DNA of 53,236 bases, from positions 71,261 to 124,496 of the forward strand of contig JAGWBV010000002.1 in the NCBI GenBank assembly GCA_021295715.1. Reading direction: 5' to 3'. The DNA is from Candidatus Poribacteria bacterium. GTDB taxonomy: Bacteria > Poribacteria > WGA-4E > WGA-3G. The translations under genes were made by a program, and so were the position numbers. The notes under the pieces were generated by a model, which saw only the letters and a program-made list of their open reading frames with translations, was not told the origin of the DNA and searched no databases. Position 1 is the stretch's first letter, and each line of letters opens with the position of its first letter. Positions 2,366 through 48,738 of the stretch are shown here, piece by piece.

Positions 2366-3169
2366 TTATTGTGATTTAATGTCTGCCCACGTTGTTGTGA
2401 GCCGTCCCTGCGGGGTGACAGGCGTTAAACCGAGCACAGAGCCAAGTCCATCGTTCATCAGATTTTGGATATCGGCTTGTTCGAGTGGCACATTGAAGAC
2501 TGCAATCTCGTCCATCAATCCCAGTGCTTGTCTTTCGGTGGGTGTTCCCCCTAAATGGACATCAACACCTGTAACGCCAAAGACTCCGGTTGTATCCTGC
2601 TCGATGTCAACTTCACCATCAACGTAGAGGATTTTCTTCGCACCGTCGTAGGTGAAAGCGAGGTGATGCCACTGATCGTCGTTAACAACGGTGGGTCCGA
2701 AGAGCCAGCGCGGATTCAGTTCACGGCTACCGACTTCGATTTTCCCTTGATTTCCGCCTCTGCCGGGACCAAAGACGTTCAGGATATTGTTCCATTGTGT
2801 TGTGAAGGCGATGACCATGTGGTCATCTGCGCAGCAGCCACCGTGTGGATCGCCTTTTCTTTGGATTTTCACCCATGCGACACCGGTGTAGGCTTCGGCT
2901 GTGCTGTCTAAACTATCTGAATTTGCGACATTGACGTAGTCATCGTCCCCATCGAGGCTAAGTGCTTTGCCCCACTTGCCGCCATCGGTAACTTCTGCGC
3001 CGTTTATAAGTTCGCCATCGTTTCCGTAGCTGCTGGAATCACTAACATCGCCATCGTCAAAAAGCCAGACACCGACAGCGGTTTCACTGTCAACTGCGGC
3101 GAAACTCTGCAGCGGGATGAATGCCAATCCCAGGACCGCCAAAACGCACAGTATAGCACGATTTTTCAT
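2366..3169 (-). CDS. Secreted LamG-domain protein with C-terminal TTTW tail
   Basis: 267 residues from ATG 3169, chosen because AAAGGAG lies 9 bases upstream and a signal peptide follows at once (MKNRAILCVLAVLGLAFIPL, QSFAA). The body is a LamG/concanavalin-like jelly roll: GVWLFDDGDVSDSSSYGNDG opening, GKWGKALSLDGDDDYV, WHHLAFTYDGAKKILYVDGE and a closing MDEIAVFNVPLEQADIQNLM. Such domains bind glycans or act as exported adhesive modules. The last residues, VTPQGRLTTTWADIKSQ, carry the tail shared with five other proteins here. Codons of this tail (ctc aca aca acg tgg gca gac att aaa) differ from those of its relatives, so the match is not a recent DNA duplication. Confidence 0.85.
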   Translation of the reverse strand: MKNRAILCVLAVLGLAFIPLQSFAAVDSETAVGVWLFDDGDVSDSSSYGNDGELINGAEVTDGGKWGKALSLDGDDDYVNVANSDSLDSTAEAYTGVAWVKIQRKGDPHGGCCADDHMVIAFTTQWNNILNVFGPGRGGNQGKIEVGSRELNPRWLFGPTVVNDDQWHHLAFTYDGAKKILYVDGEVDIEQDTTGVFGVTGVDVHLGGTPTERQALGLMDEIAVFNVPLEQADIQNLMNDGLGSVLGLTPVTPQGRLTTTWADIKSQ

Positions 3170-3288
3170 TTTACAAATCTCCTTTGAAATGTGAGTGGGT
3201 TGCCTAAACAAAACGCTTAGGCATCAATTTTCCGCTATTTTATCGTAACGGACGCGTAATGTCAAGCGGAATCTATTTTCCTTTTTTA

Positions 3289-3318
3289 TTGATTCTACGC
3301 ATTGAGATGCGCTATAAT
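3289..3318 (+). promoter_or_regulatory. Sigma-70-type promoter
   Basis: TTGATT (3289-3294), an 18-base spacer, then TATAAT (3313-3318), about 100 bases before the small membrane-protein start at 3422 and pointing towards it. Confidence 0.5.
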
Positions 3319-3421
3319 TTTATAACTAAGAAGATGTAGAAACGCTACACCAGCGATGACTCTGAAACCGGAGCGGCATTTCGTATCCGAAAACGACCTA
3401 CTTATCAGGAAGGAGAAAACG

Positions 3422-3793
3422 ATGGAAGGTAAGCATCTGCCTTGGCATTTACCTCTAACGGATTGGTTTCTCGGAGCAACGGTTTTGTTCGCAACCACTG
3501 GCACCGTCATCCTATGTCGGTTCTTGTTACGAAAATGGCAAGCGTGGCGGATTCAAAAGTTTCTCGATCAACGGTCAGCACTCGCATCTCCGGGCGAGCA
3601 GAAGTTTACGGCATACGATAAGCAGCTGCTTACGAGAAGGATTCGGCAATCCGGAAATGAGCGTTTGGAGAAAAGTTTCGCCTTTCAGGGGAACGCCGAT
3701 CTCTACGTTGCTATTGGGCTTTTCGGACTGGCGATGATCGCTTTGGTCTTGTTAGCCCTCGCGAATGGTTTCCATAAACATGGACTTCCATAA
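3422..3793 (+). CDS. Small two-helix membrane protein of unknown function
   Basis: 123 residues from ATG 3422, which follows AAGGAGAAAACG. Two hydrophobic helices are visible: FLGATVLFATTGTVILCRFL (about residues 16-36) and LYVAIGLFGLAMIALVLLAL near the C terminus, separated by a basic, Gln/Arg-rich loop of about 60 residues. I do not recognise a family. The C-terminal helix is copied in the fragment at 4466-4530 after the next gene, which suggests the nuclease-like gene was placed next to it by a duplication or insertion event. Confidence 0.65.
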   Translation: MEGKHLPWHLPLTDWFLGATVLFATTGTVILCRFLLRKWQAWRIQKFLDQRSALASPGEQKFTAYDKQLLTRRIRQSGNERLEKSFAFQGNADLYVAIGLFGLAMIALVLLALANGFHKHGLP

Positions 3794-3839
3794 GCACGGA
3801 AGACCTTTAACCGATGACTATTCTGAGGAATCCATCATA

Positions 3840-4445
3840 ATGGCATACAGCAATTTTACCTTAGAAACGGTACGGAAGACGTTTCATCTTGAAAAAATTG
3901 AATCTACAGACATCTTCTCCGATATTGAGCCGCTGGAGCCAAGCGAAGACCTCACGAGGGAATTGGCAAAGAAAGTGCCGTTAGCGATCGCTATTAGAAC
4001 AGAGAAAGCACGCTCGGAATTGATTGTTGCCAGTGTTCTTGTTGAACTCCGTGAGCACTTTGAGCATCGCATTAGTTTCTTTTCTGGAATTGACTTCAGT
4101 GTTGATCCCGAAAGCGGATTAGCAGGTGTATGCGATTTTTTAGTGAGCCGATCGCCAGATCAATTTTACTTGGAGGCACCTGTTATTGTCCTCGTTGAAG
4201 CCAAAAACGCTGATCCGGCAACCGGATTAGGACAGTGTGTTGCGGAGATGCTCGCCGCCCAACGCTTTAATGCAGAAAGAGGAAATGAAATTCCATGTAT
4301 TTATGGAGCTACGACTACAGGCACCGAGTGGCTCTTCCTGAAATTGAAAGGTCAGCAGCTCTATGTTGATATGGAGGTCTACCCAATTAGGCAATGCGGC
4401 GAGATCCTTGGCATCCTTTCAAGCATGATTGACCAAAAAGCGTAA
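3840..4445 (+). CDS. Predicted PD-(D/E)XK-superfamily nuclease-like protein
   Basis: 201 residues from ATG 3840; the frame is open upstream to 3765 but that part overlaps the membrane gene and lacks a ribosome site. The order of acidic residues fits a PD-(D/E)XK fold: Glu60 in a helix (KARSELIVASVLVEL), Asp99 at the end of a strand (GVCDFLVS), then Glu120-x-Lys122 in VIVLVEAKN, followed by a helix with Gln132 (GLGQCVAEML). Many small proteins of this type in bacteria with large genomes are annotated only as hypothetical. No partner methylase, toxin or transposase is next to it, so a restriction or defence role is not shown. Assignment rests on motif order alone. Confidence 0.6.
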   Translation: MAYSNFTLETVRKTFHLEKIESTDIFSDIEPLEPSEDLTRELAKKVPLAIAIRTEKARSELIVASVLVELREHFEHRISFFSGIDFSVDPESGLAGVCDFLVSRSPDQFYLEAPVIVLVEAKNADPATGLGQCVAEMLAAQRFNAERGNEIPCIYGATTTGTEWLFLKLKGQQLYVDMEVYPIRQCGEILGILSSMIDQKA

Positions 4446-4465
4446 ATTTTGACACTGGGCTGTTG

Positions 4466-4530
4466 GTGACTCGATGATTGCCCTGGTCGTGTTAGCCCTC
4501 GCAAATGGCTTACACAAAAGTGAGGTTTGA
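4466..4530 (+). pseudogene. Duplicated 3' fragment of the small membrane-protein gene
   Basis: Translates as SMIALVVLALANGLHKSEV and stop, matching AMIALVLLALANGFHKHGLP at the end of the gene at 3422-3793 with high DNA identity (shared run GTTAGCCCTCGC). It has no start of its own and lies directly before the next LamG gene, whose ribosome site (GTGAGG) is inside it. Confidence 0.7.
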
Positions 4531-4533
4531 AAA

Positions 4534-5292
4534 ATGAAGGTCGTAATGGCGAATTTAATGCGTGTGAGTTTAATTATTCTGAGTCTGATGTTTGCGGGCA
4601 TCAGTGCTGCCGAATTTGATCTGAAAACCGTTGCCGGGATGTGGCTTTTTGATGAGGGCAAGGGCAATACAACAGCGGATTTCTCTGAAAATGGTAATGA
4701 TGGGAAACTTGAGAACGGTCCGAAATGGATAAAGAACGGTCAATTCGGATCCGCGCTGGAATTTGATGGAAATGAGAGTAAGGGACATGTCGTTGTCGGG
4801 GATTTAGGGTTGGCTGGGGCACTTACATTGGTTTTGTGGGCGAAACCGAGTGACGCCGCCGATGATGATCGGTTAATATCGAATCTCAGTGGACCAACAA
4901 ATCCAGCTTTCGCAATTCGGTTTCAAAGTGGCGCGGTTGACATTTGGGGTAGGGCGTGGAAACCCGTCATCCCAAAATTTGATGACAAAAAATGGGGACA
5001 CTATGCGTTTGTATTAGATGATGAAGGAAACGCGACGGGCTATTACAATGGCAAAGAAGGTGAGACGGTTACCGATACCTATATTTTAACGGAAATCGGC
5101 ATCGGGGCAACTTTTTTGCATCAATGGGGACAATATTATTCCGGTCAGTTTGACGATATCGCGTTTTTCAGTGTCGCGCTCACTGAAGATGACATCAACG
5201 TCGCTATGACAAAAGGTCTGAAATCTGCCTTGGCGGTTTACCCAGCGGGCAAATTAACCACCACATGGGGAAATATCAAAACCAATCCTTGA
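4534..5292 (+). CDS. Secreted LamG-domain protein with C-terminal TTTW tail
   Basis: 252 residues. Signal peptide MRVSLIILSLMFAGISAAE follows the first few residues. The LamG fold is intact: VAGMWLFDEGKGNTTADFS, ENGNDGKLENGPKW, GSALEFDGN, WGHYAFVLDDEGNATGYYNG and a closing FDDIAFFSVALTEDDINVAM. It resembles the LamG protein at 2366-3169 in domain order but is clearly diverged. It ends VYPAGKLTTTWGNIKTNP, the tail common to six exported proteins here. The ribosome site lies within the duplicated fragment just upstream. The next gene (5329) follows at 36 bases and also opens with a LamG domain, so the two are likely co-expressed. Confidence 0.85.
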   Translation: MKVVMANLMRVSLIILSLMFAGISAAEFDLKTVAGMWLFDEGKGNTTADFSENGNDGKLENGPKWIKNGQFGSALEFDGNESKGHVVVGDLGLAGALTLVLWAKPSDAADDDRLISNLSGPTNPAFAIRFQSGAVDIWGRAWKPVIPKFDDKKWGHYAFVLDDEGNATGYYNGKEGETVTDTYILTEIGIGATFLHQWGQYYSGQFDDIAFFSVALTEDDINVAMTKGLKSALAVYPAGKLTTTWGNIKTNP

Positions 5293-5328
5293 GATCCTTT
5301 GATACATACAGATATATGGAGACTACAC

Positions 5329-8300
5329 ATGGAATATCAAGTACTCCTTACCCTTTTTGTAATAGCGGCACTGGTATTGGCAGGTGAACTCAGTAGTGTA
5401 CCAGCGGGTGAAATCGGAGGGCTGGTTGGTCATTGGGATTTTGACGACGGAACGGGGACCGACCTCTCTGGGAATGGGAACCACGCCGTGCTGGGTGAAA
5501 CAAAGATTTATTCGCTCGGTGAAGGACGTGCCTGTATTGAAACAATGTCCAAGACCGAACCGATGCGGATTCCGGTGCCTGAGAATTCTCCACTTGCGAT
5601 GTCGCGCGGCACAATCTGTTTTTGGCTAAATACGATATCGGATAGGTCCAACATTCTCAGGTATAACAACGATGGTCTCGAACTTAACACCTATCGTGGC
5701 TGTTTCCAGGTGCGTTTCCGTGGTGAAAAGGATTTTGAATACTGGGAAGGGATTCTCGACTATGACTGGCACAAGTACGACATGCGCGAATGGGCGTTCT
5801 ATCCGCATGTGAAAGCCTCCATCGGCGATTCCGAATGGCATCTGTTTGCGGTTGCCTACGACGACAAAGCGAAGCAAATCGTGGGATGGCGGGATGGCGA
5901 ACAGATCGCAACAATTGATTTATCAACAGTTAATACAGAGCCGCTGCGTCAAGAGGGTTTAACGGAGATTCACACGGGTGAACGCTTTGTCGGTTATCTC
6001 GACGATTTGCGCATCTATAACAAGCCACTCACCGATGCTGAAGTCCGTCGGATTTACAATGAGACCAAAGCCATTTATGCGGGAAGACGGGATACGAATC
6101 CGGCTGAAAGAAGGCAGAACACTTACAAGTACCAAGAAATAGACAGGACACTCTACAAGGCGTGGTTACAGTTCGATCCGCCTGCTACAAAACAACACAG
6201 TCAGGATTTATTCAAAAACATTGTTGCTGAGGGAGCGAATTCGACTGTTCAGATGGCTGGTTCTGAGTTAGTCCAGGCGGTAGAATCCATGTTCGGCTTC
6301 ACGCCTTCCATTTCGGAGACTGTCCCTGTCACTGGACCGAAGATTATTCTCGGTACAGTTGAAACCTCCAACTGGATCCGCGATCGTGCTGCAGACCTCC
6401 AACTGGATCGAATCGAAGGTGATGGGTTCGTCATCAAGGCAATGGAAGGAGCGATTGTTGTTGCCGGAGGAATACCCGCGGGGGTTGTTTTCGGTACCTT
6501 CGACCTGATTCGCCGCATCCAGATTGGACAGGATCCGCTCGCATTTGATGTGCTGGAAAATCCGCAAGTGCCTATCCGTATGGTGGCACACTGGTCGTAT
6601 TTCCGCGGACTTTTCGGGGACAGATGGCGCGGTGGTGGCAGAGACGATTCAATTTTCAGCTGGGAAGAGTTGCGGACTGGCGATACCAAACGCATCCGAG
6701 ATTGGGTGCGCATGTTGGCATCGTGCGGTTGGAATGCGCTTTGTCCGAGTGAAATTAACTGGCATTATCGCAACAATTTTCTGGATCATCTCGATGAGGT
6801 CGAAAAACTCGCTGACATCTGCCGAGACTACGGTATCAAACTTTATTGGAGTCCGAGTTATCTCCTTGCACTCGACCCTAAAACCGCTGATACCCTCTAT
6901 GCCCGCGTGCCTGACTTCGGTGGATACATGATGAAACTCGGTTCAGAGAAACAGAACGGCGATCCGCGCCCTCCGATGACGAACCGGATTGCGGATACAC
7001 TAAAGCCGTATGATGGGAAGGTACTTGTGCGCGCGTTCGTCTACGGCAATCTGCGATACACACCTGAACCCTACCGAAATTTGATTCCGTATGATTTATT
7101 CGCACACGAGGATGGTAATTTCCGAGACAACGTTGTTATAGTCCCGAAAGGCAGCCCCATGGATTGGGATCTGTGGGCACCAATACCAGCGCTTGATGGT
7201 GCGATTCAGAAAAACCTATATGGAAGTGAACTCGTCGTTGACAAGAGTTGGCCCGTCTCTTGGGTCAAAAAGTGGAAATGGTGGTTTGAACAAGACACGT
7301 ATCGCAATGGACCGGGGAGCCTGAACAAATTCAGTGTGGACTGCATCATGGGGGTGTCCATGATCTCGCCCTCACCGGCGTGGACGAAATGTCCATTGAA
7401 CGCCGTGAACTATTATGGACTCGGACGACTCGCTTGGAACCCAGACCTGACGGTAGATGAGATTTACACGGAATGGATTCAGCAGACATTTGGCGATGCT
7501 CCAGATGTACTTGAAACAGTCAAGACTATCCTGATGATCCTTGAAGAGGTGACGCGTAAGTCCTACAACTATCGTGGGTACCGCGGTATATGGCTTGATT
7601 CCTCCGACCCCGGTATGACGGAAAACAAGACCCCTTATGTCGTCAATGAAGACGGTGTAGGTGTTATGACACCTGCGTTGCGTGAGCGCGTGTTAGCACA
7701 GTATGCCCAAGGGCTTCAAAAAATATATGGAGATCCGTTGCGCGGGGAGGCACACCTCGTTACCTTCCACTTCACAGAACACGATCAGCAACTTTCTATC
7801 GGCAGAACCCTCATCCAAGACATCTACGCCAACATGGAAGAGGGTGTTGAGATGGCAACGCAGGCAGCTGAACTCTGGAAAATGCTTGAAGGCAAAGTAG
7901 ACCAGCATAGATATGAATACACGCTAAAAACGCTGGTGGACTATGCCGCATCTGTCCGCAGCCTCACCCTTAAGAAATGGGTCACGAACTTTGAGAAGTA
8001 TACCAATAGAAAACGCGAGGAAACACTCGCAGAACTGACTGCGGAAGCACTTGCGAAAGTTGGCACATATAACGTGCGGCATTTCGGTGCTGTTGCCGAT
8101 GGAAAATCAGATGATGCAGGCGCGATCAACGAAGCCATTACAGCCTGCTATACTGCTGGGGGTGGGACAGTCTTCGTGCCGTCAGGTGTCTATGCAACGG
8201 GTTCTATCCATCTGAAAAGCAACGTTACGCTCGCGGTTGACGCAGGGGCGATCCTTATGTTTTCCAACCCTAATCCAGATTCCTTATTGCTTGTTGGAGA

Positions 8301-8664: not shown

Positions 8665-8672
8665 CAAATGAA

Positions 8673-8697
8673 TAGGCGAGGATAGAATCCTCGCCTA
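8673..8697. terminator. Hairpin between convergent genes
   Basis: TAGGCGAGGA / TCCTCGCCTA, a perfect 10-base stem with loop TAGAA, 8 bases after the GH67 fusion stop. There is no T-run, so it could equally be a small intergenic repeat. Confidence 0.45.
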
Positions 8698-8766
8698 CAA
8701 GGATAGGACCTTGTTCATTGAACAATTGTCCACATATTTTGGGGGCTACTTTATAAGCCAGCGGTA

Positions 8767-10611: not shown

Positions 10612-10664
10612 AATTAACCTCCTGAAACTTAGCACTCAATTCAAACACATTCGGTGTAAAAATT

Positions 10665-10720: not shown

Positions 10721-10741
10721 GTTTGGCAGGGGGCATTGAAT

Positions 10742-11977: not shown

Positions 11978-11984
11978 TAGAGGT

Positions 11985-12017: not shown

Positions 12018-12108
12018 ATAAGTTGATACGCTTACTGGTTTGTAGTTGTTAACCATTATTTCGTGTGAGTGGTTCATGGCTGTGGATGTTGTGAGTTTAC
12101 GGGAAAGT

Positions 12109-15054: not shown

Positions 15055-15610
15055 AGTTTAATTAGAATTACGCTACCCTTTTTTAATTATAAAGACACAA
15101 TTTATTGGGAAAAGGGTGCATTTAGATCGAAAATATTTGAAAAATATGAGTTTTTTTATTTTTTTACGAATTGGTGGCTTGTTTAGGGCAAGAAATCTGC
15201 CTACATTGACCCTCAGCTGTCAGTAGGATCACGAAATATTTTTTTTGAACTGACGCTGCGCGATTTTGAGTAAGTTCCCGTTCAAATAGCGGACGATGGT
15301 TTAGTTTTTCGTCGGGATATTTTCAACTGACGCGTCCGTGCGATTCTATCGCGATAACAAGGCTAACCTAATTGTAGCATAACACACAATTCCTAAGCAA
15401 CTGAGGGTACACCTATGTCACGCGACGACCCTTCTCTTATATCTTTGGCATTTACTTTCGGTGGGTATGCGAGTTATACCAATCTGAAGAAAAATTGGTG
15501 TTTATGCACCCATTCGCTGCAAAACGGTGTCTTTAAACTTTAAAGGATATCCTTACAACCCGTAACTTGCGTTATATTAACTTTTTTAAGTGACTATCGG
15601 AGGAATACAG
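15055..15610. other. Non-coding gap between divergent sigma-fusion and PD40 genes
   Basis: About 550 bases with no credible gene on either strand. It holds an AT-rich tract (about 15121-15175, with TTTTTTTATTTTTTT), two partly similar stretches each containing AACTGACGC followed by GCGATT (about 15245 and 15318), and a CTTTAAA/TTTAAAG inverted repeat near 15533. Promoters for both flanking genes are expected here; I cannot pick a convincing -35/-10 pair. Confidence 0.5.
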
Positions 15611-16621
15611 ATGAAATATGTACGCGCCTTCTACGTAATCAGTGGGATACTACTATGTGCGAACGTTTCTTCACTTTTCGCAAAAGCCCCAGAAACTGCC
15701 AAAATCGTATTCAGATCAACGCGTGATGGCAACTTTGAGATTTATAGCATGAACCCGGATGGCTCTGATCAGAAAAACTTAACCCGGCACCGTGCCAATG
15801 ATTCCGCGCCTGTCTGGTCGCCGACAGGTAGACAGATTCTTTTTCTCTCGGATCGAGGTGGGATACCAGATCTCTACCTTATGGATGCCGATGGAACGAA
15901 TGTGCGTCAGGTGTTCAAAAAATTAATAGGCAGAGAGTTTCCAACGTGGTCGCCTGACGGAAAAGCGATTGCTTATCACCGATTTCACACATTCTCTATC
16001 TACACCGCCTCAATTGACGGAACAAATGAGGAAAAACTTGCGGATGGCTTATGGCCTGCGTGGTCTCCCCACGGTGCTGAGATAGCTTTTATGGCAGGCG
16101 AGTTTGTTTGGGCTGACAACGGCAACCTCAGATTTCCGGACGTCAGCGTCGAGATTATCAATCTACAAACGCATGCAAAAGAGAAACTTCTTCCGAGGAG
16201 TATTTCGATGTATAGACCTATCTGGGTACCCGATAGTGATCAGATAACCTTTTCTTGGAACGGTAGGCAAGAGAACGGTTTTTTAGAAGCTAACAAGAGA
16301 GTGCATACCATAGATATCTACGTTGTGAACCGAGATGGTAGCGGACTCAGGAAGATTATTGAGTCTGGAGCAGACATTGGAGTGTCTAACCCTACTTGGT
16401 CACCACGCGGGGATGAACTCATTTACAACATTTACAATCATCAAGGTCGTGGCTCCAGACAGCTCTTTAAAGCCACTTTGGACGGCGGTACCCCAGAGCA
16501 GCTCACACACCGGGGTAATAATTTCCGCGCCGATTGGTTCGATCCGGCGTTTGCTTTGCCGGTGTCACCCCAACCGTCCCTTTTGACGACCACGTGGGGG
16601 AAACTCAAAACACGAGACTAA
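15611..16621 (+). CDS. Secreted PD40 (TolB-type) beta-propeller protein with C-terminal TTTW tail
   Basis: 336 residues from ATG 15611 (CGGAGGA upstream). Signal peptide YVISGILLCANVSSLFAKA. Then six-bladed-propeller PD40 repeats: IVFRSTRDGNFEIYSMNPDG, PVWSPTGRQILFLSDRGG, TWSPDGKAIAYH, AWSPHGAEIAFM, VPDSDQITFSW and TWSPRGDELIYN. It ends FALPVSPQPSLLTTTWGKLKTRD (21 residues back from the stop begins the tail motif). Such propellers bind peptides or glycans; nothing here suggests the Tol-Pal TolB itself, since no TolA, TolR or Pal is present. Closely related in layout to the proteins at 20474 and 47755. Confidence 0.85.
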   Translation: MKYVRAFYVISGILLCANVSSLFAKAPETAKIVFRSTRDGNFEIYSMNPDGSDQKNLTRHRANDSAPVWSPTGRQILFLSDRGGIPDLYLMDADGTNVRQVFKKLIGREFPTWSPDGKAIAYHRFHTFSIYTASIDGTNEEKLADGLWPAWSPHGAEIAFMAGEFVWADNGNLRFPDVSVEIINLQTHAKEKLLPRSISMYRPIWVPDSDQITFSWNGRQENGFLEANKRVHTIDIYVVNRDGSGLRKIIESGADIGVSNPTWSPRGDELIYNIYNHQGRGSRQLFKATLDGGTPEQLTHRGNNFRADWFDPAFALPVSPQPSLLTTTWGKLKTRD

Positions 16622-17128: not shown

Positions 17129-17158
17129 CCTTTCAAAAAACTTTGCGAGGAGGACATG

Positions 17159-18280
17159 ATGAGATGGACAAGGATTGAGGACCCTCTCTTTCTGATAAAA
17201 GGCGGGCTTGTATATTATACAATGTTAGGGATTGTCCTTTTTCTAAGTGGTGGTCTGCTGTTCATAGCCAACTGGGCAGACGCTGCTAAAAGCGACCGGA
17301 TCTCTTTTGCTTCCAATCGTGGAGGAAACTTTGATATCTATGTCAGGGACATCAACGGTGAGCACGCCCGCAACTTGACGAACCACCCAACGGATGAGTT
17401 TGGTCCCTGGGCTGGCATAGGATTGCCTGTGCATACCTGGTCTCCAGATGGACGTTTCTTGGCTTATGTCTCCGGGCGAGATGGAGTTTTTAAGATTTAT
17501 GTCATGGACACACGGACGAGGGAACACCGGCGACTCACACATCGCCGCGAAAAAGAATTGGCTCCTGCGTGGTCTCCGGATGGCAAGTGGATTACCTTTG
17601 TCTCCCATGATAACGAAGGTGACAGCGAAATCTACAAAATGGAGGTCAAAAGCGCACATCTGGTCCAATTGACAGACTTTGGAGGAAACGAGCACCCTGC
17701 GTGGTCTCCGGATGGCAAACAGATCGCTTTTGTCTCTTTATCCCACAATCGAGGGGGTAAGAGGGACGGTCTCTATATAATGAATGCCGATGGGGAACGG
17801 TTGAGACGAGTGCCTAACGCCAACAGAGGTTTGATTGGGAAAGGATGTGCGTGGTCTCCGGATGGCAAACAGATCACTTTTAGTGTCTACATCCCTAACA
17901 CCCGGCGAGAGCATCTCTGTGTGATTGACGTGGATGGCAGGAACTTTCGCCAACTCACCCGAGGCGGTCCGATACCCATATTAGGGAATAAGGAACCCGC
18001 CTTTCCGCTTTTACCTCGACCTCCTCTTCCGGAGATTGGTTCTCCCGCATGGTCCTCCGATGGCAAGTGGATTGCCTACGTTTATTCAGAGACAATACTC
18101 TGGCAAACTGCTGACATCTATATTATAGACGCGGCGGGGAACGGGCGCGGTCAACCACTTGTAACGGGTGCACGGCAAAATTTATCTCCTGCGTGGGTGC
18201 CGGAGGGGTTTCTCTCTGTATCGCCGAGCATCGAGAAGCAGACAACCGTCTGGGGCAGGCTGAAAGAAAAAACAGATTAA
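17159..18280 (+). CDS. PD40 (TolB-type) beta-propeller protein with C-terminal TTxW tail
   Basis: 373 residues. Two adjacent ATGs (17156, 17159) follow GAGGAGGA; the second has the better spacing. A long N-region precedes a hydrophobic helix (MLGIVLFLSGGLLFIANWAD), so this may be a signal anchor or a cleaved peptide. PD40 repeats are regular: TWSPDGRFLAYVS, AWSPDGKWITFVS, AWSPDGKQIAFVS, AWSPDGKQITFSV and AWSSDGKWIAYVY. It ends LSVSPSIEKQTTVWGRLKEK plus TD, a diverged version of the shared tail (TTVW rather than TTTW). It follows the Cys-rich peptide gene and its hairpin. Confidence 0.85.
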   Translation: MRWTRIEDPLFLIKGGLVYYTMLGIVLFLSGGLLFIANWADAAKSDRISFASNRGGNFDIYVRDINGEHARNLTNHPTDEFGPWAGIGLPVHTWSPDGRFLAYVSGRDGVFKIYVMDTRTREHRRLTHRREKELAPAWSPDGKWITFVSHDNEGDSEIYKMEVKSAHLVQLTDFGGNEHPAWSPDGKQIAFVSLSHNRGGKRDGLYIMNADGERLRRVPNANRGLIGKGCAWSPDGKQITFSVYIPNTRREHLCVIDVDGRNFRQLTRGGPIPILGNKEPAFPLLPRPPLPEIGSPAWSSDGKWIAYVYSETILWQTADIYIIDAAGNGRGQPLVTGARQNLSPAWVPEGFLSVSPSIEKQTTVWGRLKEKTD

Positions 18281-18371: not shown

Positions 18372-19512
18372 ATGAATCCTTATGAAAAACCATTTATCAA
18401 GCCTTTGAGCAACTACACAATTCTTTTCTTGGAACAGTGTGCCCACTATTGTACGCATTCATAGTGGTGCTAAAAACGGAGCTGCTTTTATAAATTTTGT
18501 TTTGGCTGTATACGGAGCGAAGCGTCCCTTTGATGCCATCGTCGTTGATGCCCCTTGGCTCATACATCGTTTTCAAGAAATATTGTCATCTGACATTGAT
18601 TTTTCTTTTCTCCCTGATCCGATTGATCTCGAAAGGTTTCAGCCATACCAAGACAAGATAATAGGGAAGCGATGTATAAACGCCATTTTTGACACACAAG
18701 AGGTCTTCCAAAAACCCGTTGTCGGAATCATCCTTGGAGAAGTGCCCGAAGTCAATTATCGTGTTGGGGAATTCATTGCTCAGTTGTGTCCAGAACTCTT
18801 CTTTGTTGTATTCGCACCTGAGTTACCAGATATGTATTTAAATAATCTGCCTAATAACCTTGTTTTTTATACAGAAACTGAACAACTTGGGACGGATCCA
18901 CACTTGCTCCCGATGCTATTCAACGCTATGGATATCTGCTTCTTCCATGCAAACTTACAAAGCTCCAGTTCGCTACTGTTCCAGGGTTTGGCTTGCGGAG
19001 TCCCTACGCTTATAGGGACGAGTGTTGCTATACCTGAGTTTGGGAACGCCTGTGCTTTTATAGATTCAAAAAGAGAGATTACAGACCACGAATACTTGAA
19101 ACACGTTCTCGAGGACTCAAAGCAGTTATTGGCAGATAGCTCAGAAATAGATCGGCTCTCCAAGGAGGGCCGGAAATTGGCAGAAAGTTTTTCTTCCGAT
19201 GCCATTTCGGAGCATTTTATTAACCTTATTCACTCATTAACGCAGCGACAGATCGAAACTGAGGCGATGTCCACTTTCAATTCTTTCCCTAATCTGTTCT
19301 GCTATAATTATGATAACAATCATGGGACTGTCCGATCTCAAGCACTTCAGCATCCACACTATTCCGCAGAAAGTATTGAGGTTGGACTTGCTAAAGAGCT
19401 TCTCAACTCTCACTCACGCCCGCAGGTTGAGACGCTTCTCACTGAAATATGCGATGATAATAGAGAGAAGGTATCTCACATTTTAGACACACTTTCCGGG
19501 TCGGTGCTGTAG
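18372..19512 (+). pseudogene. GT4-like glycosyltransferase, frameshifted and N-terminally shortened
   Basis: The main frame (18439-19512, 357 residues) has no good start: its GTG lacks a ribosome site and TGA stands upstream at 18406. A second frame from ATG 18372 gives NPYEKPFIKPLSNYTILFLE and then stops at 18462, so a one-base shift near 18436-18450 would join the two. Downstream is a GT-B glycosyltransferase second half: FLPDPIDLERFQPY, VVGIILGEVPEVNYRVGEFI, DICFFHANLQSSSSLLFQGL and ACGVPTLIGTSVAIPEFGN. The expected donor-binding Glu of the E-x7-E block is replaced (LLFQGL). Together with the broken nucleotidyltransferase next to it, this was a sugar-activation and transfer pair. Sequencing error is an alternative. 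Confidence 0.7.
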
Positions 19513-19624
19513 TCTGGGTTGTCACTCATACTAATGATTTTGGTGGATATTCGCAAATTTTAAACGAATCAACTCTTACGGGCGGGCGGAACACCCTGCC
19601 AGTGAAAGAAGGTACCGGTATCCT

Positions 19625-20320
19625 ATGCAAGCGATTATTCTGTGTGGCGGTTTAGCAAAGCGGTTGGGTGAGACTACGAAAACAGTCCCAAGATTTTGCT
19701 TGACATTGCTGATCAAACAGTGTTGAATTGGCAACTGCAACTACTCAAAGAGGCAGGTGTCAGAGAGGTCATCCTCGCCTCGGGCCACCTGCACAATGTG
19801 CTGTATGAACGCGTGGGAGACTGCTACGGTGGTGTGTATTCGCTATGCGAAAGAAGAGAAAAGACTCGGTACCGGCGGCGCGATCCGGAACGCTATGAAA
19901 TATATCACCGCGTCCCCTTTTTTGGCCTCAACGGCGATGTGCTCCTTGATAACTTTTCGTTCCGAGGGATGTTAAATTACTTTCGCCCAAGACATGACAG
20001 GATTGTTACTGAGTGTGTATGTTGATGATATGCGTCCCTACGGATAGATTGTATCCGACAGAAACGGGAAAATTATAACCTTCTGTGAGAAACAATTAAC
20101 CTGTTCTGCAGGATACATCAATGGGGGAATGTATCTCTTCAACGAAGCAATTACTGAGGTGTTTCCCAAGGATAGGGACAGTTTCTCAATTGAACAGAAT
20201 GTTTTCCCTTACGTGTCCGATTTGTGGACGTTGTGCACCGATGCGAATTGGATTGATATAGGTGTCCCAGAACGGCTAGCGTATGCGAGACAGCACTTCC
20301 GAAATGGAGGGTTTCGGTAA
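19625..20320 (+). pseudogene. Sugar-phosphate nucleotidyltransferase (HddC/ManC-like), multiply frameshifted
   Basis: Family motifs are all present but spread over two frames: MQAIILCGGLAKRLGETTKT at 19625, then KILLDIADQTVLNWQLQLL from about 19690, GTGGAIRNAMKYI near 19870, FGLNGDVLLDN near 19925, SAGYINGGMYLFNEA near 20120 and ANWIDIGVPERLAYARQHF at the end. Joining them needs four frame changes (near 19695, 19845, 19905 and 19995), and an in-frame TAG stands at 20045. An intact enzyme would activate a sugar-1-phosphate with NTP (GDP-heptose or GDP-mannose type). This much damage points to real decay rather than one sequencing slip. Confidence 0.75.
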
Positions 20321-20473
20321 AGGGAGTGTCGTTGGTAATCGGTGTTGCGCCTGATATTTTTCAAGTCCCAGAAAGAAGTCGTCTATTTGAGAAAAAATGA
20401 TACAATAGGCATTGGGGAACTCCTTTTTCAGGGGTTAGGTTACCTCATGATACCAGATGGAGGAAAGAATCTT

Positions 20474-21445
20474 ATGAACCGCTCGTGTTTGTTTATTTTT
20501 TTTACACTCAGTCTGATGCTGTTGTACCAAGGGCTGTGTCCTGTTTTGGCAAATGCTCCAGCAACTGCTAAAATCGTGTTTAGCTCCACTCTTGACGGCA
20601 ACGCGGAAATTTATATGATGAACCCAGATGGGAGTCAACGGGTGAGATTAACCAATCACCCAGCGCGCGATTCGGCACCCGTTTGGTCACCAACAGGCGA
20701 ACAGATTGTTTTTAACTCCGATCGCGATGGGAAATGGGACATCTACATTATGGATGCGGACGGGACAAATGTGAGGAGGGTGTTTAAGACGCTTGCACAT
20801 AGAGAACATCCAGCATGGTCTCCCGATGGAAAATGGATTGCTTACACGCTGCATGCTGAATGGGCTATCTATATTGCGAAGACTGATGGGCGCGATGCCA
20901 AGAGAATCGCTTCGACGGGTTTTCTTGGAGGGGATCCAGCATGGTCTCCCGACGGAACGCAGATCGCGTTCTGTTTGGCACAAGCTATAAATCCAGGAAG
21001 TTACCAACTTCGACTTGTCAACCTAAAGACCGGTGATCAAGAAACGATCCATCCGGAGCCTTGGCTGCGAATGACCCAACCGGCTTGGTCTCCGAATAGC
21101 GACCAAATCGCCTTTGCCCACATTCCAGTATTGAGACAGGATGTCCCTAAAGGGACAATCTACACGCTGAATCGTTTTGGTGGCGAACTCAGACGAATTG
21201 TTTCTGAGAAGGGTGGGAGGGCATCCCATCCTACATGGTCTCCAGATGGAGAGGAACTTCTTTATCAACAGAAAATCGGAAATCATACGCAGCTCTTTAA
21301 AATCAATTTGGGTACGAGTCAAATCCAAAAACTCACCCGCCGTGGTAGCAATTTCCACGCCGATTGGTTTGATCCACAGGTGTTGCCCGTTCAGCCAGCG
21401 AAAAAGACAATCACAACAATTTGGGCTGAAGTGAAGAAGGAGTAA
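20474..21445 (+). CDS. Secreted PD40 (TolB-type) beta-propeller protein with C-terminal TTxW tail
   Basis: 323 residues from ATG 20474, chosen over upstream starts because GGAGGA lies 8 bases before it and a signal peptide follows at once (CLFIFFTLSLMLLYQGLCPV, LANA). PD40 repeats: [76 protein letters not shown] and TWSPDGEELLYQQ. It shares HADWFDPQVLPVQP with the RADWFDPAFALPVSP of the protein at 15611, marking them as close paralogues. The tail is KKTITTIWAEVKKE, so Gly of the motif is Ala and the helix residue is Val. It lies downstream of the decayed glycosylation pair. Confidence 0.85.
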   Translation: MNRSCLFIFFTLSLMLLYQGLCPVLANAPATAKIVFSSTLDGNAEIYMMNPDGSQRVRLTNHPARDSAPVWSPTGEQIVFNSDRDGKWDIYIMDADGTNVRRVFKTLAHREHPAWSPDGKWIAYTLHAEWAIYIAKTDGRDAKRIASTGFLGGDPAWSPDGTQIAFCLAQAINPGSYQLRLVNLKTGDQETIHPEPWLRMTQPAWSPNSDQIAFAHIPVLRQDVPKGTIYTLNRFGGELRRIVSEKGGRASHPTWSPDGEELLYQQKIGNHTQLFKINLGTSQIQKLTRRGSNFHADWFDPQVLPVQPAKKTITTIWAEVKKE

Positions 21446-27030: not shown

Positions 27031-28468
27031 ATGGAAAAACGTCCAAATATTTTATGGTACTGCACAGACCAGCAACGTTTCGACACTATCGGAGCGTTGG
27101 GAAATTCACACATCAACACGCCGAGACTCGATGAATTCATGCGTCAGTCAGTCACATTCACCCACGCCTATTGCCAATCTCCCATCTGCACACCTTCTCG
27201 TGCGAGTTTTATGACCGGTATGTACCCTTCAGCCGTGAGCGTCACTGGCAACGGTAACGCCGTTTTCCCCGAATATTATGAAGATCGATTGATAACTCAC
27301 GCATTGGCGCAAGATGGCTATGACTGTGGGTTAATTGGTAAACTCCATCTCGCGAGTGCTTTTGAGGCACAAGAACAGCGCGTGGATGATGGATACCGCT
27401 ACTTCCAGTATAGCCATGACCATGGGAAACCGAATGCGCTCGGACACGAATATGCCGATTGGCAACGTGCACAAGGGGTCGATCCTGAGGCGTTGATCGC
27501 GGAGAAGGCAATTTCTCAAAGGTATCCGAACAGGAGTGGGCGTGTGCATGAACCGTCCCCCGATCGCGATAATGTTCCACCGCACCTGCATCAGACTTAC
27601 TGGTGCACCGAGAAAACAATCGAATTTGCCGAGAAAAATCGTCGAGAAAATCAGCCGTGGATGCTGAGTATCAATCCATTTGACCCACATCCACCGTTTG
27701 ACGCGCCGTGGGAGTATTATCGACGGTACGACCCGGAAACACTGCCCGGTCCCTATTTTCAGGAGAGCGATATCGCCTTTCAGTCGCAATTGACAGATGC
27801 GGGTATCGATTTCCAATCTCAGGCGAAACCACCTTCGGAGTGGGACGACAAACGGATGCAAGCATCTTATTACGCCATGATAGAACAACTCGACCATGAG
27901 TTCGGACGTATACTCGACTACCTTGATGCCGAGGGACTTCGTGAAGATACGATTGTTATCTTCACTTCTGACCATGGAGAGGCACTTGGCGACCACGGGT
28001 TGGTATACAAAGGGTGCCGTTTTTACGAAGGATCCGTGGCCCGGACATTTCTTACAGGATGTTCAAAGCGACGCCCTCGTTGAACTGCTTGATATTGTTC
28101 CTACACTATATGATGCATCAAGTGTGGAGGTTCCGTACTACGTACAAGGCAAATCTCTTGCCCCACTATTGCGCGGTGATGTTCCTGCCAACGAGCATCG
28201 AGAGGCGGTTCGTTGCGAATTTTTCGATGCAATCTCAATGCCCGATCAGACACACGCCACGATGTATCGGGACCAACGCTGGAAGCTTGTAACCTACCAT
28301 CAAAAAGGGCTTTGTGAACTTTACGATCTCGACAACGACCCTTGGGAACATAACGATCTTTCGGAGCATGCCGATTATCAAGCCGTCAAATGGGAATTGA
28401 TGCAGAAAAGCTTCGACGCGACCGTTTATGCGCACCCTCAGATGATACCGCGTGTCGCTTCGCACTAA
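27031..28468 (+). pseudogene. Type I sulfatase, disrupted by a small deletion/frameshift
   Basis: The 5' frame (27031-28083, 350 residues) has the alkaline-phosphatase-fold sulfatase core: PNILWYCTDQQRFDTIG with Asp13, the formylglycine site Cys53-Thr-Pro-Ser-Arg57 (PICTPSRASFMTG), NPFDPHPPFD and TSDHGEALGDHGL. After FYEGSV the frame is lost near 28035, and the C-terminal part resumes in the +1 frame as WPGHFLQDVQSDALVELLDI and RDQRWKLVTYHQKGLCELYD, ending at 28468. Relatives have about seven residues (a VPFIIS-type segment) at the junction, so roughly 20 bases are missing. An intact enzyme would desulfate carbohydrate or other sulfate esters. Real decay or an assembly gap are both possible. 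A TCAGC element lies just upstream. Confidence 0.8.
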
Positions 28469-39881: not shown

Positions 39882-39896
39882 AGGAGGACTGAAGAG

Positions 39897-41729: not shown

Positions 41730-41731
41730 CG

Positions 41732-42931: not shown

Positions 42932-43032
42932 CAGTCAGTCGTCAGCAATCAGCAGTCAGAAAGAAGGTGCTACTTTGTCAGGAACCTTTTACCGATAGCT
43001 GAAAGCCGAAAGCCGACGGCTACTAAAAAAGG
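42930..43032. repeat. Full copy of the TCAGC inverted-repeat element
   Basis: GCAGTCAGTCGTCAGCAATC, AGCAGTCAGAAAGAAGG, a centre, CCTTTTACCGATAGCTGAAA, GCCGAAAGCCGACGGC and TACTAAAAAAGGAG. Its right arm closely matches the copy at 26897-27022, and it also ends exactly in the ribosome site of the following gene. Confidence 0.8.
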
Positions 43033-43041
43033 AGAAATACG

Positions 43042-45573: not shown

Positions 45574-45732
45574 TCCATTACAAGGATGCCAAAGAACAGA
45601 GCCTGCAACAATACGCAGAAATACTTTCTTCGCATTGGATTTTAGCGTTTGCAAAAACACGCAGGCGGGTCTACGTAAAGGCACTTCAAAATCTCAATTT
45701 CACCTGACCGAACCGCAAGGAATAATTAAAAA

Positions 45733-47646
45733 ATGAGCGTGAGAGCAATTCTGATCGGTTTGGCACTCGTCATTATACAAACAGCAATTACCCCCTATAA
45801 CGACTACTACCTCCAAGGGACAGATATTGCCGGAAATCATTTCCCTTTGGGGACAGTGTTCACACTGATTTTTCTCACCTTAGTCGTCAATCCCATTCTG
45901 AAAAAAGTATTTCCCCGAGCAGTGCTAAGTCCAGGCGAATTGATGATCGTCTGGGTGATGATGGTCATCAGTTCAGCGATTCCATCGAAAGGAATGGTCG
46001 GGTACTTACTACCCTATTTGGCGGCACCGGTCTATTTTGCTACACCTGAGAATGAGTGGGCAGAAACGCTGCATCCGCATTTCCGCGAATGGTTAATTGT
46101 GTGGGATGAACATGCCGTTACGGATTTCTATGAGGGAGAATCAATTGTTCCTTGGGTACTTTGGGCAAAACCGCTTGTTGTTTGGACGGTTTTCATCCTA
46201 CTGTTCTATGCGCTGACGATCTGCGTATCGGTTGTGTTAAGGAAACAGTGGGTTGAACGCGAGAGGTTCATCTTTCCGCTCGTTACTGTGCCTGTAGAGA
46301 TGGTTCAGCAAACCTCAATGCACGCCGGACTGAACAGTTTGTTCAGGAATCGGCTCGTGTGGGTAGGGTTTGGAATCGCCGCCTTTTTTCATCTACTTAA
46401 TGGATTACACGAGTATTTCCCCGCACTCCCGCGAATTCCGAATCGGTATGATTTGTATACCCCATTCACAGAGCGTCCGTGGATTGTGATGGGTTGGTGG
46501 CCCCAATTTCGGTTCTTTCTCTACTTCTCGGTTATCGGGATAACCTACTTTCTCGCAATGGAAGTGTCTTTCAGTTGCTGGTTTTTTTTCCTATTCTTCA
46601 AGTTACAGTACATCATCATCAACGCCTTTGCTATCCCTATCAGTCCGTGGATCTCTGCAAGAGGACAGACAATGGCTGCCTATGTGGTCATGGTTCTTGC
46701 CTTTCTGCTTAATAGTCGGACTCATATCACGGATCTCTTGAGGAGAACGTTTCTGGAGTCCACTTCATCTACAACGATCGACGATTCAGACGAGGTATTA
46801 CCGTATAGATGGGCGGTGCTGGGAACAATTCTTAGTTTTCTGTTGCTTGCGGGTCTCTGCGTCTATGCTGGGATGTCATTTTGGGTCGCCTGTAGCATTA
46901 TTGCGCTGTTCCTGATTGCTTCTACCGCGCTGTCATGGATGGTCGTCAACGGTGGAATGCTACTGATCCAAGCACCGATGTACCCTGTGGAATACTTTGA
47001 GATTATTACGGGTTCAAGAATTATTAACGCAAATAGCTTAGCACTCTTGGGATTTCAGCGGGTAATGATGCGCGACTGGGGCGGTATTTTGATGCCGAGC
47101 GTTTTGCACGGCTTCAAAGCGGCGGATCCGGTCGGATTAAATCGAAGAAGTATCCTTGGGGCAATGGTGCTCTCGATTGCTGTTGCTATCGGTGTTTCCT
47201 ATGTTGCATCGCTGCCGTTGATTTATGAAAAAGGCGGCTTAAATCTGCAGAGAGGTCCCTTCGTCGGATCACCGAGATACTTTAATCATATCGTCTCACT
47301 GATTCAGTATCCGAAAGACGCGAAATTGGGGGAAGCGTACAGCATGCTCTTGGGAACCGGAATCACTACCTTTCTCTTGATTATGCAGCGTCAATTTATG
47401 TGGTGGCAACTTCACCCGATTGGATATGTGATGGGCGCGGTGTATTCCTCCTATTTCCTCTGGTCCTGTATATGTATTGGCTGGTTTTTGAAGTATCTGG
47501 CACTGAAATCGGGTGGGATCGGATCCTATAGAAGGCTTCGACCGCTGTTTATGGGATTGGTTATCGGCGAGTTTGGTATTGTAGGGGTTTGGATGATAAT
47601 CGGAATGTTTACGGGTGTGAATTACCAAGGTGCCTTACCCGGATAA
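45733..47646 (+). CDS. Polytopic membrane protein (DUF6785/DUF6784-like)
   Basis: 637 residues; CAAGGAATAATTAAAAA precedes the ATG. I count at least ten membrane helices, for example LGTVFTLIFLTLVVNPIL, MIVWVMMVISSAIPSKGMVG, VWTVFILLFYALTICVSVVL, LGTILSFLLLAGLCVYAGMS, CSIIALFLIASTALSWMVVN and LVIGEFGIVGVWMIIGMFTG. The LSPGELMIVWVMM opening and the VERERFIFPLVTVPVEMVQQ loop fit the DUF6785-type family found in PVC and related bacteria, often in gene sets for exported glycan or protein turnover. A transport role is possible but unproven. It is the last gene of the long operon. Confidence 0.75.
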   Translation: MSVRAILIGLALVIIQTAITPYNDYYLQGTDIAGNHFPLGTVFTLIFLTLVVNPILKKVFPRAVLSPGELMIVWVMMVISSAIPSKGMVGYLLPYLAAPVYFATPENEWAETLHPHFREWLIVWDEHAVTDFYEGESIVPWVLWAKPLVVWTVFILLFYALTICVSVVLRKQWVERERFIFPLVTVPVEMVQQTSMHAGLNSLFRNRLVWVGFGIAAFFHLLNGLHEYFPALPRIPNRYDLYTPFTERPWIVMGWWPQFRFFLYFSVIGITYFLAMEVSFSCWFFFLFFKLQYIIINAFAIPISPWISARGQTMAAYVVMVLAFLLNSRTHITDLLRRTFLESTSSTTIDDSDEVLPYRWAVLGTILSFLLLAGLCVYAGMSFWVACSIIALFLIASTALSWMVVNGGMLLIQAPMYPVEYFEIITGSRIINANSLALLGFQRVMMRDWGGILMPSVLHGFKAADPVGLNRRSILGAMVLSIAVAIGVSYVASLPLIYEKGGLNLQRGPFVGSPRYFNHIVSLIQYPKDAKLGEAYSMLLGTGITTFLLIMQRQFMWWQLHPIGYVMGAVYSSYFLWSCICIGWFLKYLALKSGGIGSYRRLRPLFMGLVIGEFGIVGVWMIIGMFTGVNYQGALPG

Positions 47647-47754
47647 TTTTCCCCTACTCGTTTCTTGAGCGTCTGTGTAAACCCTTATACCCAACGCTCG
47701 TTAAAAATACAAGGTCCTCAAGGATTTTCGTTCAGATCGCTAAGGAGGTAAATT

Positions 47755-48738
47755 ATGAAGTTGATGTTTCCTAAAGGAATCATAAAACTGTTCTGTTTAC
47801 AGAAGTGTTTTTTGGCAGTATTGGCAGGCCTTTTCACCGTATTGGCAAATCAGACTCCCGCGGATGTTATGAAGATCGCCTTCACCTCAACCAGAAATGG
47901 TAATTCTGAAATCTATGTGATGAATACCGATGGAACAAATCCGGTCAGACTCACTAAAAATCCGGCATCAGACAGTGGGCCCACTTGGTCTCCAGACGGT
48001 AAGCGCATTGCTTTTACCTCGAACCCAAAAGGCGTCTACGATATCTATGCGATAAATGCTGATGGGACAAACCGCATCAATCTCACACGAAATTCGTCAG
48101 GCGACTTTGGTGCTGATTGGTCTCCGGATGGGACGCAAATCGTCTATGGTTCAAACCGAGGGAACGAAGAGATCTATATCATGCGCGCAGATGGTAGCAA
48201 GCCTACGAATATCTCACGGCATGTAAAAGCCGACCGCCACCCAGATTGGTCTCCGGATGGAACACGAATTGCCTTCACCTCAGACCGAGATGGTGATCGT
48301 GAGATCTATGTGATAGGCGTTGGTGGAGGCAGACCTATTCAACTGACGAAAAACTTGGAACCATGGGACAGGGCTGCTGCCTGGTCTCCAGATGGCAAGC
48401 GAATTGCCTTCACTTCAGGCAGAGATGGTGATTTTGAAATCTATGTGATGGATGCCGATGGTTCCGATACCATTCAACTAACGCATAACCTATTCGCATT
48501 TGATGATCATGCTGCCTGGTCTCCAGATGGGACAAAAATCGCCTTCAGTTCTGACCGAGATGGTGAGGATGACATCTATGTGATGAATGACGACGGCTCC
48601 AACCCTGTCAATCTCACTCAAAATCTGGCTGGCAGTAATAGGAGTCCCGCTTGGCAGCCGCTACCGTTAGCGGTTTCGCCGCAAGAAAAGTTGGTGACGC
48701 TGTGGGGAAACCTCAAAAGCAAGCAGAAACCGTATTAG
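47755..48738 (+). CDS. Secreted PD40 (TolB-type) beta-propeller protein with C-terminal TTxW-type tail
   Basis: 327 residues; AAGGAGGT lies 7 bases before the ATG. Signal peptide [19 protein letters not shown]. Six very regular PD40 blades: [84 protein letters not shown] and a closing AWQPLP. The high blade-to-blade identity suggests recent internal amplification. It ends [20 protein letters not shown] plus KPY; Thr-Thr has become Val-Thr-Leu before Trp-Gly, the most diverged tail of the six. Faces a convergent enolase-family gene. Confidence 0.88.

What the first reader, a model, noticed from the sequence alone, without database searches (positions are those of the whole stretch)
2366..48738. 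Shared C-terminal tail on six exported proteins of two different folds
Sequence: LTTTWADIKSQ (LamG, stop at 2366), LTTTWGNIKTNP (LamG, 5292), LLTTTWGKLKTRD (PD40, 16621), QTTVWGRLKEKTD (PD40, 18280), TITTIWAEVKKE (PD40, 21445), [15 protein letters not shown] (PD40, 48738). Each is preceded by a V-x-P linker (VTPQGR, VYPAGK, VSPQPS, VSPSIEK, VQPAKK, VSPQEK), lies at the very end, and sits on a protein with a signal peptide or signal anchor. The codons differ between copies (aca aca acg tgg; acc acc aca tgg; acg acc acg tgg), so protein-level selection keeps it. Knowledge: it does not look like LPXTG, PEP-CTERM or T9SS tails (no transmembrane helix, no basic end rule, no Ig-like domain). Inference: a previously undescribed C-terminal sorting, anchoring or processing tag, possibly with a dedicated machine elsewhere in the genome.
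Basis: partly seen in the sequence, partly recalled or inferred. Interest (0 to 1): 0.9.

Follow-up and report, generated by a model that had tools for sequence, protein, structure and literature searches.

The report
Poribacteria's shared protein tail tag
Poribacteria, uncultured bacteria best known from marine sponges, stamp dozens to well over a hundred exported proteins of many kinds with the same roughly 20-amino-acid tail, which looks like an undescribed address label and may be read by an outer-membrane secretion machine that these bacteria also seem to carry.

Summary
The six tails are real; a profile of them scored 150 matches in the genome (its cap). All 147 fetched lie at the C terminus. 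Consensus: V-x-P-x-[GD]-K-L-[TA]-T-T-W-[GA]-x-[LIV]-K, usually 1-4 residues from the end. 128 complete carriers form 27 sequence clusters. In an unbiased 435 kb, 23 of 24 tail genes look exported, against 59 of 336 others. All 82 genomes of the phylum searched have it, 27 to 107 (the cap) scored copies each. A sparse codon pattern over 84,980 species hit only records titled Poribacteria (23 of 23 stretches). The tail lies outside the fold in two AlphaFold models. Exosortase and sortase: 0 of 20 genomes each. The same phylum encodes a divergent T9SS-like set: SprA-like (73 of 79), PorV family (39 of 39), PorU-like (20 of 20, none over cut-off), type A domains (20 of 20). Best reading: a new short C-terminal sorting signal, most likely used by this T9SS-like machine to put soluble proteins on the cell surface. 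The tag is well supported. The T9SS link is inference: tails are not enriched near PorV genes.

The parts
2366..3169 (-). LamG-domain exported protein (267 aa) ending in the tail
   Evidence: Pfam Laminin_G_3 2e-19; hydrophobic N terminus
2369..2434 (-). tail ..PVTPQGRLTTTWADIKSQ
4534..5292 (+). LamG-domain exported protein (252 aa) ending in the tail
   Evidence: Pfam Laminin_G_3 1e-13; AF2 model (mean pLDDT 66.8): tail residues 235-252 pLDDT<50, outside the fold
5221..5286 (+). tail ..LAVYPAGKLTTTWGNIKTNP (profile match; the last residue lies just beyond it)
15590..16621 (+). PD40 beta-propeller exported protein ending in the tail
   Evidence: Pfam PD40 1.5e-21
16541..16618 (+). tail ..LPVSPQPSLLTTTWGKLKTRD
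   Evidence: E 7.9e-12
17156..18280 (+). PD40 beta-propeller exported protein ending in the tail
   Evidence: Pfam PD40 6e-41
18203..18274 (+). tail ..LSVSPSIEKQTTVWGRLKEKTD (profile match; the last residue lies just beyond it)
20474..21445 (+). PD40 beta-propeller exported protein ending in the tail (ORF opens at 20342; likely start 20474)
   Evidence: Pfam PD40 1.3e-38 for the whole ORF
21371..21442 (+). tail ..LPVQPAKKTITTIWAEVKKE
47755..48738 (+). PD40 (TolB-like) beta-propeller exported protein ending in the tail
   Evidence: Pfam PD40 1.4e-57; AF2 model (mean pLDDT 81.9): propeller confident, tail residues 306-327 pLDDT<50; best PDB fold TolB
48658..48726 (+). tail ..[23 protein letters not shown] (profile match; the last three residues lie just beyond it)

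Best explanation
The tail is a phylum-wide Poribacterial C-terminal sorting signal. Shown: a separate ~20-residue module at the end of soluble proteins that look Sec-exported and belong to many families, with a W-[GA]-x-[LIV]-K core that hardly varies. Inferred: after Sec export the tail is bound by an outer-membrane receptor, the W and K being read and the V-x-P stretch serving as spacer, and the protein is moved to or held at the cell surface. Most likely machine (inference): the T9SS-like set found in the same phylum, that is an SprA-like translocon, one or more PorV-family shuttles and PorU-like proteins. The tail would then be a minimal second signal class beside the ~70-residue type A domains carried by larger proteins. 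Whether the tail is cleaved is unknown. I put the claim 'a real C-terminal localisation or docking tag' at about 0.9; the figure below is for the T9SS-like reading.
For: Tag: 147 of 147 fetched matches terminal; 27 hits against 0 reversed; 128 carriers in 27 core clusters; 82 of 82 genomes. Export: in 360 crude gene calls of C2+C3, 23 of 24 tail genes count as exported by a hydrophobicity rule and the 24th misses the cut by about 0.01, against 59 of 336 others (Fisher 2e-15). Other anchors: lipobox-like 1 of 128 tail proteins against 8 of 59 exported others by one rule (p 5e-4); within C2+C3 alone 0 of 23 against 8 of 59 (p 0.1). Tail outside the fold in 2 of 2 models. Machine: SprA_N in 73 of 79 genomes, one each, 28 of 79 over cut-off, and TIGR04189 surface_SprA E 1e-42 to 5e-51 in 3 of 3 ORFs tested; PorV_fam in 39 of 39 genomes, 13-25 matches, at least one over cut-off in each; PorU-like in 20 of 20, best E about 1e-72 or better, none over cut-off, with a PorV gene directly downstream in 4 of 4 loci inspected, two of which were picked because the lists already showed this; type A domains, 27-78 matches in 20 of 20. 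Exosortase 0 of 20 and sortase 0 of 20, with control genomes positive.
Against: No direct link between tail and T9SS. In the own genome 3 of 15 PorV genes lie within 5 kb of a tail, against 3.6 expected for random places on the same contigs. The tail profile has no similarity to the ends of 8 Poribacterial type A domains (hhalign probability 0.24%). It is far shorter than the T9SS signals I read of (shortest 40-55 residues; the same passages say motif B of RgpB was needed for secretion; PMC11969387). Phyla that I recall having T9SS did not appear in the sparse scan. SprA hits stay under the equivalog cut-off, PorU hits under theirs, and no positive control rang for SprA_N. GldM was found in 0 of 20, though no control rang either. 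In the own genome 7 of 16 PorV matches are over cut-off.
Confidence: 0.42

Rival explanations
1. A dedicated, T9SS-independent receptor: the tail docks exported proteins onto an unidentified outer-membrane or surface scaffold protein specific to Poribacteria.
For: Tail hits only in Poribacteria records in the sparse scan while the T9SS-like parts belong to wider families; no similarity to type A ends; no PorV-tail clustering; strong W and K conservation fits a tight pocket.
Against: No candidate receptor found; SprA-like and PorV-family genes are already present in most genomes sampled (73 of 79; 39 of 39).
Confidence: 0.3
2. A periplasmic or compartment docking peptide, working like encapsulin or microcompartment cargo peptides (short C-terminal peptide after a flexible linker), clustering lectin-like proteins without crossing the outer membrane.
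For: Shape of the tail: linker plus short end; weak short helix at low confidence in both models. Resemblance to encapsulin cargo peptides is recalled, not tested.
Against: Carriers look exported, unlike cytosolic encapsulin cargo; no shell gene was searched.
Confidence: 0.12
3. A C-terminal handle for quality control or turnover of exported proteins, read by a periplasmic protease or chaperone.
For: Terminal position; conserved near-terminal K and hydrophobic residue.
Against: Present on 23 of 82 soluble exported proteins in the sample and not on the rest, and seldom if ever with a lipobox, which fits localisation better than turnover.
Confidence: 0.08
4. Not a tag: the last strand of the LamG and PD40 folds, or a relic shared by descent of a few paralogue families.
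For: LamG and PD40 make up 57 and 26 of 128 carriers.
Against: 27 core clusters share it; low-confidence extension outside both folds; found in 82 of 82 genomes; codons diverged.
Confidence: 0.02

Closest known systems
T9SS type A C-terminal domain (TIGR04183, Por_Secre_tail)
   Same: C-terminal, on Sec-exported soluble proteins, dozens of matches per genome in the same phylum; ends near a basic residue
   Different: The model has 72 positions and the domain is Ig-like, ~100 aa (PMC12618676, introduction); no profile similarity to the tail
Short T9SS CTDs of Prevotella intermedia (PMC11969387, passages read)
   Same: Shortened C-terminal T9SS signals on exported proteins; the passages also say that in P. 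gingivalis only the last 22 residues of Hbp35 were absolutely required for secretion and attachment of GFP
   Different: 40-55 residues with motifs B, D, E and three predicted strands; motif B of RgpB was needed for secretion. The tail has ~20 residues and none of these motifs that I could recognise by eye
PEP-CTERM / exosortase and LPXTG / sortase
   Same: Short C-terminal tag on many unrelated exported proteins (recalled)
   Different: No transmembrane helix in the tail; exosortase and sortase in 0 of 20 genomes each
GlyGly-CTERM / rhombosortase (PMC3237569, search listing only)
   Same: Many-to-one pairing of a C-terminal signal with one enzyme (title)
   Different: Has a C-terminal transmembrane helix (recalled), absent here
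Encapsulin cargo-loading peptides (recalled)
   Same: Short C-terminal docking peptide after a linker
   Different: Carriers here look exported

Membership tests
T9SS type A CTD | match to TIGR04183 or similarity to its end | tested here: not met
   TIGR04183 not among the 25 listed of 34 families matched by 128 tail proteins (each unlisted one matches at most 1 member); hhalign 0.24%
T9SS type A CTD | Ig-like beta-sandwich C-terminal domain | tested here: not met
   AF2: low-confidence tail beyond the fold in 2 of 2 models
T9SS substrate in general | Sec signal peptide plus C-terminal signal | tested here: met
   23 of 24 against 59 of 336 (own hydrophobicity rule, no SignalP at hand). The laxer rule (127 of 131) passes 194 of 336 non-tail genes too, so it adds little
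T9SS substrate in general | secretion depends on SprA and a shuttle | not testable with these tools
   needs genetics or co-complex modelling
T9SS machine in Poribacteria | SprA/Sov translocon | tested here: met
   SprA_N 73 of 79 genomes, 28 of 79 over cut-off, 0 of 14 controls, so no positive control; TIGR04189 145-173 bits in 3 of 3 ORFs, under the 200-bit equivalog cut-off
T9SS machine in Poribacteria | PorV shuttle | tested here: met
   PorV_fam over cut-off in 39 of 39 genomes; this is a PorV family model, not PorV alone
T9SS machine in Poribacteria | PorU sortase | tested here: inconclusive
   20 of 20 with hits up to 353 bits, 0 of 20 over the 420 cut-off; two unrelated controls ring below cut-off; porU-porV order in 4 of 4 inspected, two picked for it
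T9SS machine in Poribacteria | PorL/M (GldL/M) motor | tested here: inconclusive
   GldM 0 of 20, but no control genome rang either; the other motor and ring parts not searched
PEP-CTERM/exosortase | exosortase gene | tested here: not met
   0 of 20, control M. jannaschii positive
LPXTG/sortase | sortase gene | tested here: not met
   0 of 20, three Gram-positive controls positive
Lipoprotein | lipobox | tested here: not met
   1 doubtful of 128
Encapsulin cargo | encapsulin shell gene and cytosolic cargo | not tested
   shell gene not searched; the carriers look exported

The most novel reading that the evidence does not exclude
A new class of C-terminal sorting signal: a ~20-residue tag without a transmembrane helix, ending in W-[GA]-x-[LIV]-K, read by its own Poribacteria-specific receptor, independent of type A T9SS sorting, and governing much of the surface proteome of a whole phylum.
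Probability: 0.3. Interest if true: 0.9.

Novelty: new variant of a known kind. Interest (0 to 1): 0.78.

Why it matters
If true, two open points become testable. First, a short sequence label predicts a large part of the exported proteome of Poribacteria (23 of 82 soluble exported proteins in the 435 kb sample), rich in lectin-like and propeller proteins that may meet the sponge host. Second, a 2014 study (PMC3909097, passages read) reported Por-type C-terminal domains in Poribacteria but found no structural genes of the Por system; the genomes searched here carry SprA-like, PorV-family and PorU-like genes, which could supply the missing pathway and take the T9SS beyond the phylum in which a 2025 paper says it is exclusively found (PMC12618676, outline and introduction read).

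Tried and rejected
Last strand of the folds: rejected. LPXTG and PEP-CTERM: rejected. Lipoprotein: rejected. Truncated type A CTD: no support. Genetic linkage of tails to PorV: not enriched, 3 of 15 against 3.6 expected. One PorV paralogue does lie near tail genes in 7 loci (L224-L229 and L137), but L224-L229 were picked because the lists showed both on one contig, and the paralogue sits next to a large protein whose end looks CTD-like by eye, so the neighbourhood looks inherited; L144 has the same coordinates and gene order as L226 and is not counted. A tail gene is the divergent neighbour of sprA in the own genome and lies one gene away from it in G077, but I saw none in the other 7 SprA neighbourhoods printed. 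PorP-type shuttles: weak, 8 of 20, none over cut-off. Solved structures: the tail profile has no match below E 0.2.

Literature: no paper that I saw describes the tail. One search listed 20 of 2,309, one search listed 1 of 1, one search listed 15 of 12,567 and one search listed 8 of 21 papers holding a TTTWG-like string; the rest were not seen. For a Poribacterial T9SS, searches gave the same 3 papers (passages of all three seen; none describes one) and one search listed 10 of 13. One search (T9SS outside Bacteroidota) listed 12 of 122 and (short CTDs) 2 of 2. Subscription papers and preprints are not held.

Limits: the genome search scored at most 150 matches in the own genome (265 first-look candidates) and at most 107 per genome, so counts are lower bounds; scaling 27 tails in 435 kb gives about 319 for the genome. 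The sparse pattern fits only 1 of 147 own tails, so small tail sets in other phyla could be missed. No genome outside the phylum was searched with the tail profile. The signal-peptide rules are plain hydrophobicity rules of mine; the lax one also passes 194 of 336 non-tail genes, and the one is about as lax, so only the comparison discriminates. W and K counts come from tails found by a profile and anchored on W-x-x-x-K, so they overstate invariance.
Full report
OBSERVATION. Two carriers are LamG proteins and four are PD40 propellers.

I fetched DNA for 147 of the 150 (three left out). The match ends 0-9 residues before the stop in 146 of 147 and 16 before it in one. Of 146 distinct tails, all anchored on W-x-x-x-K, residue +1 after W is G in 114 and A in 32, +3 is L, I, V or M in all, -2 is T in 125, -5 is K in 112, -10 is V in 112; 1-4 residues follow the K in 125. 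The K is not absolute: PD40 homologues in several genomes end in QQWGKIR...

CONTROLS. On contigs C2 (144 of 147 kb) and C3, together 435 kb, a profile of 64 tails hits 27 of 5,843 ORFs at E<=0.01 and none of the reversed ORFs (at 0.1: 28 against 1); all 27 are terminal. In 360 crude gene calls, 24 of the 27 tail ORFs are present: 23 count as exported, and the 24th misses the cut by about 0.01 and has a signal-like N terminus; among the 336 non-tail genes 59 count as exported, 60 as multi-pass and 217 as cytosolic (Fisher 2e-15). A laxer N-terminal rule gives 127 of 131 in the own genome and 76 of 78 in loci of other genomes, but the rule also passes 194 of 336 non-tail genes, so these two figures discriminate little. 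In loci of other genomes 89 of 89 tails are terminal, up to 24 of them by construction of the pattern that fetched them. The tail profile finds nothing below E 0.2 among 177,635 solved sequences.

CARRIERS. Of 128 complete, distinct carriers, 57 match LamG, 26 PD40, 7 the 3-keto-disaccharide hydrolase domain, 4 CBM9 and 2 Kelch (25 of 48 families listed). With both ends trimmed they form 27 BLAST clusters (54, 26, 8, then small ones and 14 singletons), some of which may be distant relatives. Lipobox-like motifs by one rule: 1 doubtful of 128 against 8 of 59 exported non-tail proteins (p 5e-4); within C2+C3 alone 0 of 23 against 8 of 59 (p 0.1). AlphaFold models of one PD40 and one LamG carrier from the window put the tail beyond the fold at pLDDT under 50, with a weak short helix; the LamG model is only moderate (mean pLDDT 66.8).

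DISTRIBUTION. A strict codon pattern scanned over the 84,980-species collection gave 24 matches in 23 stretches, all 23 in records titled Poribacteria; only 1 of 147 own tails fits that pattern, so this is a sparse sample. The same pattern gave 0 in viral contigs. That the phylum is Poribacteria follows from these titles and from three contigs of the phylum set that equal named Poribacteria records in length.

MACHINE. Exosortase and sortase are each found in 0 of 20 genomes while control genomes respond. SprA_N matches one ORF in 73 of 79 genomes (28 of 79 over cut-off, 0 of 14 controls); three of three such ORFs match the Sov/SprA model at 145-173 bits, below its 200-bit equivalog cut-off, so this is a divergent SprA. 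PorV-family: 39 of 39 genomes, 13-25 matches, at least one over cut-off in each; in the own genome 16 matches in 15 genes, 7 matches over cut-off. PorU-like: 20 of 20 with best E about 1e-72 or better in open frames of 1,973-2,324 aa, none over cut-off, two unrelated controls ringing below cut-off. In 4 of 4 loci inspected such an ORF is followed at once by a PorV gene on the same strand (two were picked because the lists showed it), as I recall for porU-porV in Bacteroidota. Type A CTDs: 27-78 matches in 20 of 20 genomes, the best ones mostly on long ORFs; 2 of 14 controls ring, 1 over cut-off. GldM gave nothing in Poribacteria or controls; PorP was weak.

INTERPRETATION. Shown: a conserved terminal module on many families of soluble exported proteins in every genome searched of one phylum, outside the folds, absent from clear cytosolic proteins in the sample, and seldom if ever combined with a lipobox. 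That is the pattern of a localisation or docking tag. For: of the C-terminal-signal machines I searched for, it is the only one found. Against: no linkage of tail and PorV genes (3 of 15, 3.6 expected), no similarity to type A ends, and a length well below the T9SS signals I read about. A separate receptor remains a serious rival.

KNOWN WORK. A 2014 single-cell study reported domains potentially of TIGR04183 on Poribacterial proteins, WD40 ones above all, and no Por structural genes (PMC3909097, passages). A 2025 paper calls the T9SS exclusive to Bacteroidota and describes type A (~100 aa) and type B (150-235 aa) signals (PMC12618676, outline and introduction). The shortest T9SS signals I read of are 40-55 residues (PMC11969387, outline and passages). 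No paper that I saw describes the tail or a Poribacterial T9SS machine; the lists were partly capped.

MENDED ON CHECKING. The lax signal-peptide counts, the lipobox test, the PorV expectation, the 24 tails terminal by construction, the selection of the porU-porV loci and the capped lists are stated above as the calls bear them out.

Noticed in passing
L178:7586-14443, L179-L186; A divergent SprA/Sov-like translocon gene (mostly ~2,150-2,300 aa, one per genome) in 73 of 79 Poribacteria genomes, although the T9SS is described as exclusive to Bacteroidota.
   Followed up: partly
L230:2840-10294, L231, L232, L233: PorU-like protein of 2,084-2,147 aa followed directly by a PorV-family gene in 4 of 4 loci inspected (two picked for it).
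   Followed up: partly
L224:1489-2412, L225:8564-9556, L226:2129-3160, L227:7605-8576: PD40-like exported proteins beside tail genes carry a variant tail (IEPSTLQIQQWGKIR or QQWGKLKTPYEVINN) that the profile misses, so the tag family is wider than counted.
   Followed up: no
window 27031-28468: A sulfatase appears split between two overlapping frames (27031-28083 and 27896-28468), suggesting a frameshift in the gene or the assembly (named by eye).
   Followed up: no
window 18439-20025: ORFs that look by eye like a glycosyltransferase and a short piece of a nucleotidyltransferase (19696-20025); the latter seems truncated.
   Followed up: no
L050 (C3:183662 and C3:185958): Two nearly identical short ORFs (MPHNKFKKDRET...) both ending in the tail but with no signal peptide in the frame; probably remnants or misread starts.
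   Followed up: no
L225:2-3859, L228:7345-12000: Very large proteins ending in ..RGLYVFRLEA.N..GNRANVVGKVLVVE, CTD-like by eye, next to the same PorV paralogue in the 7 loci seen.
   Followed up: no
L039, L067: Runs of N inside two tail-bearing ORFs of the own genome (withheld or unresolved sequence); left as they are.
   Followed up: no
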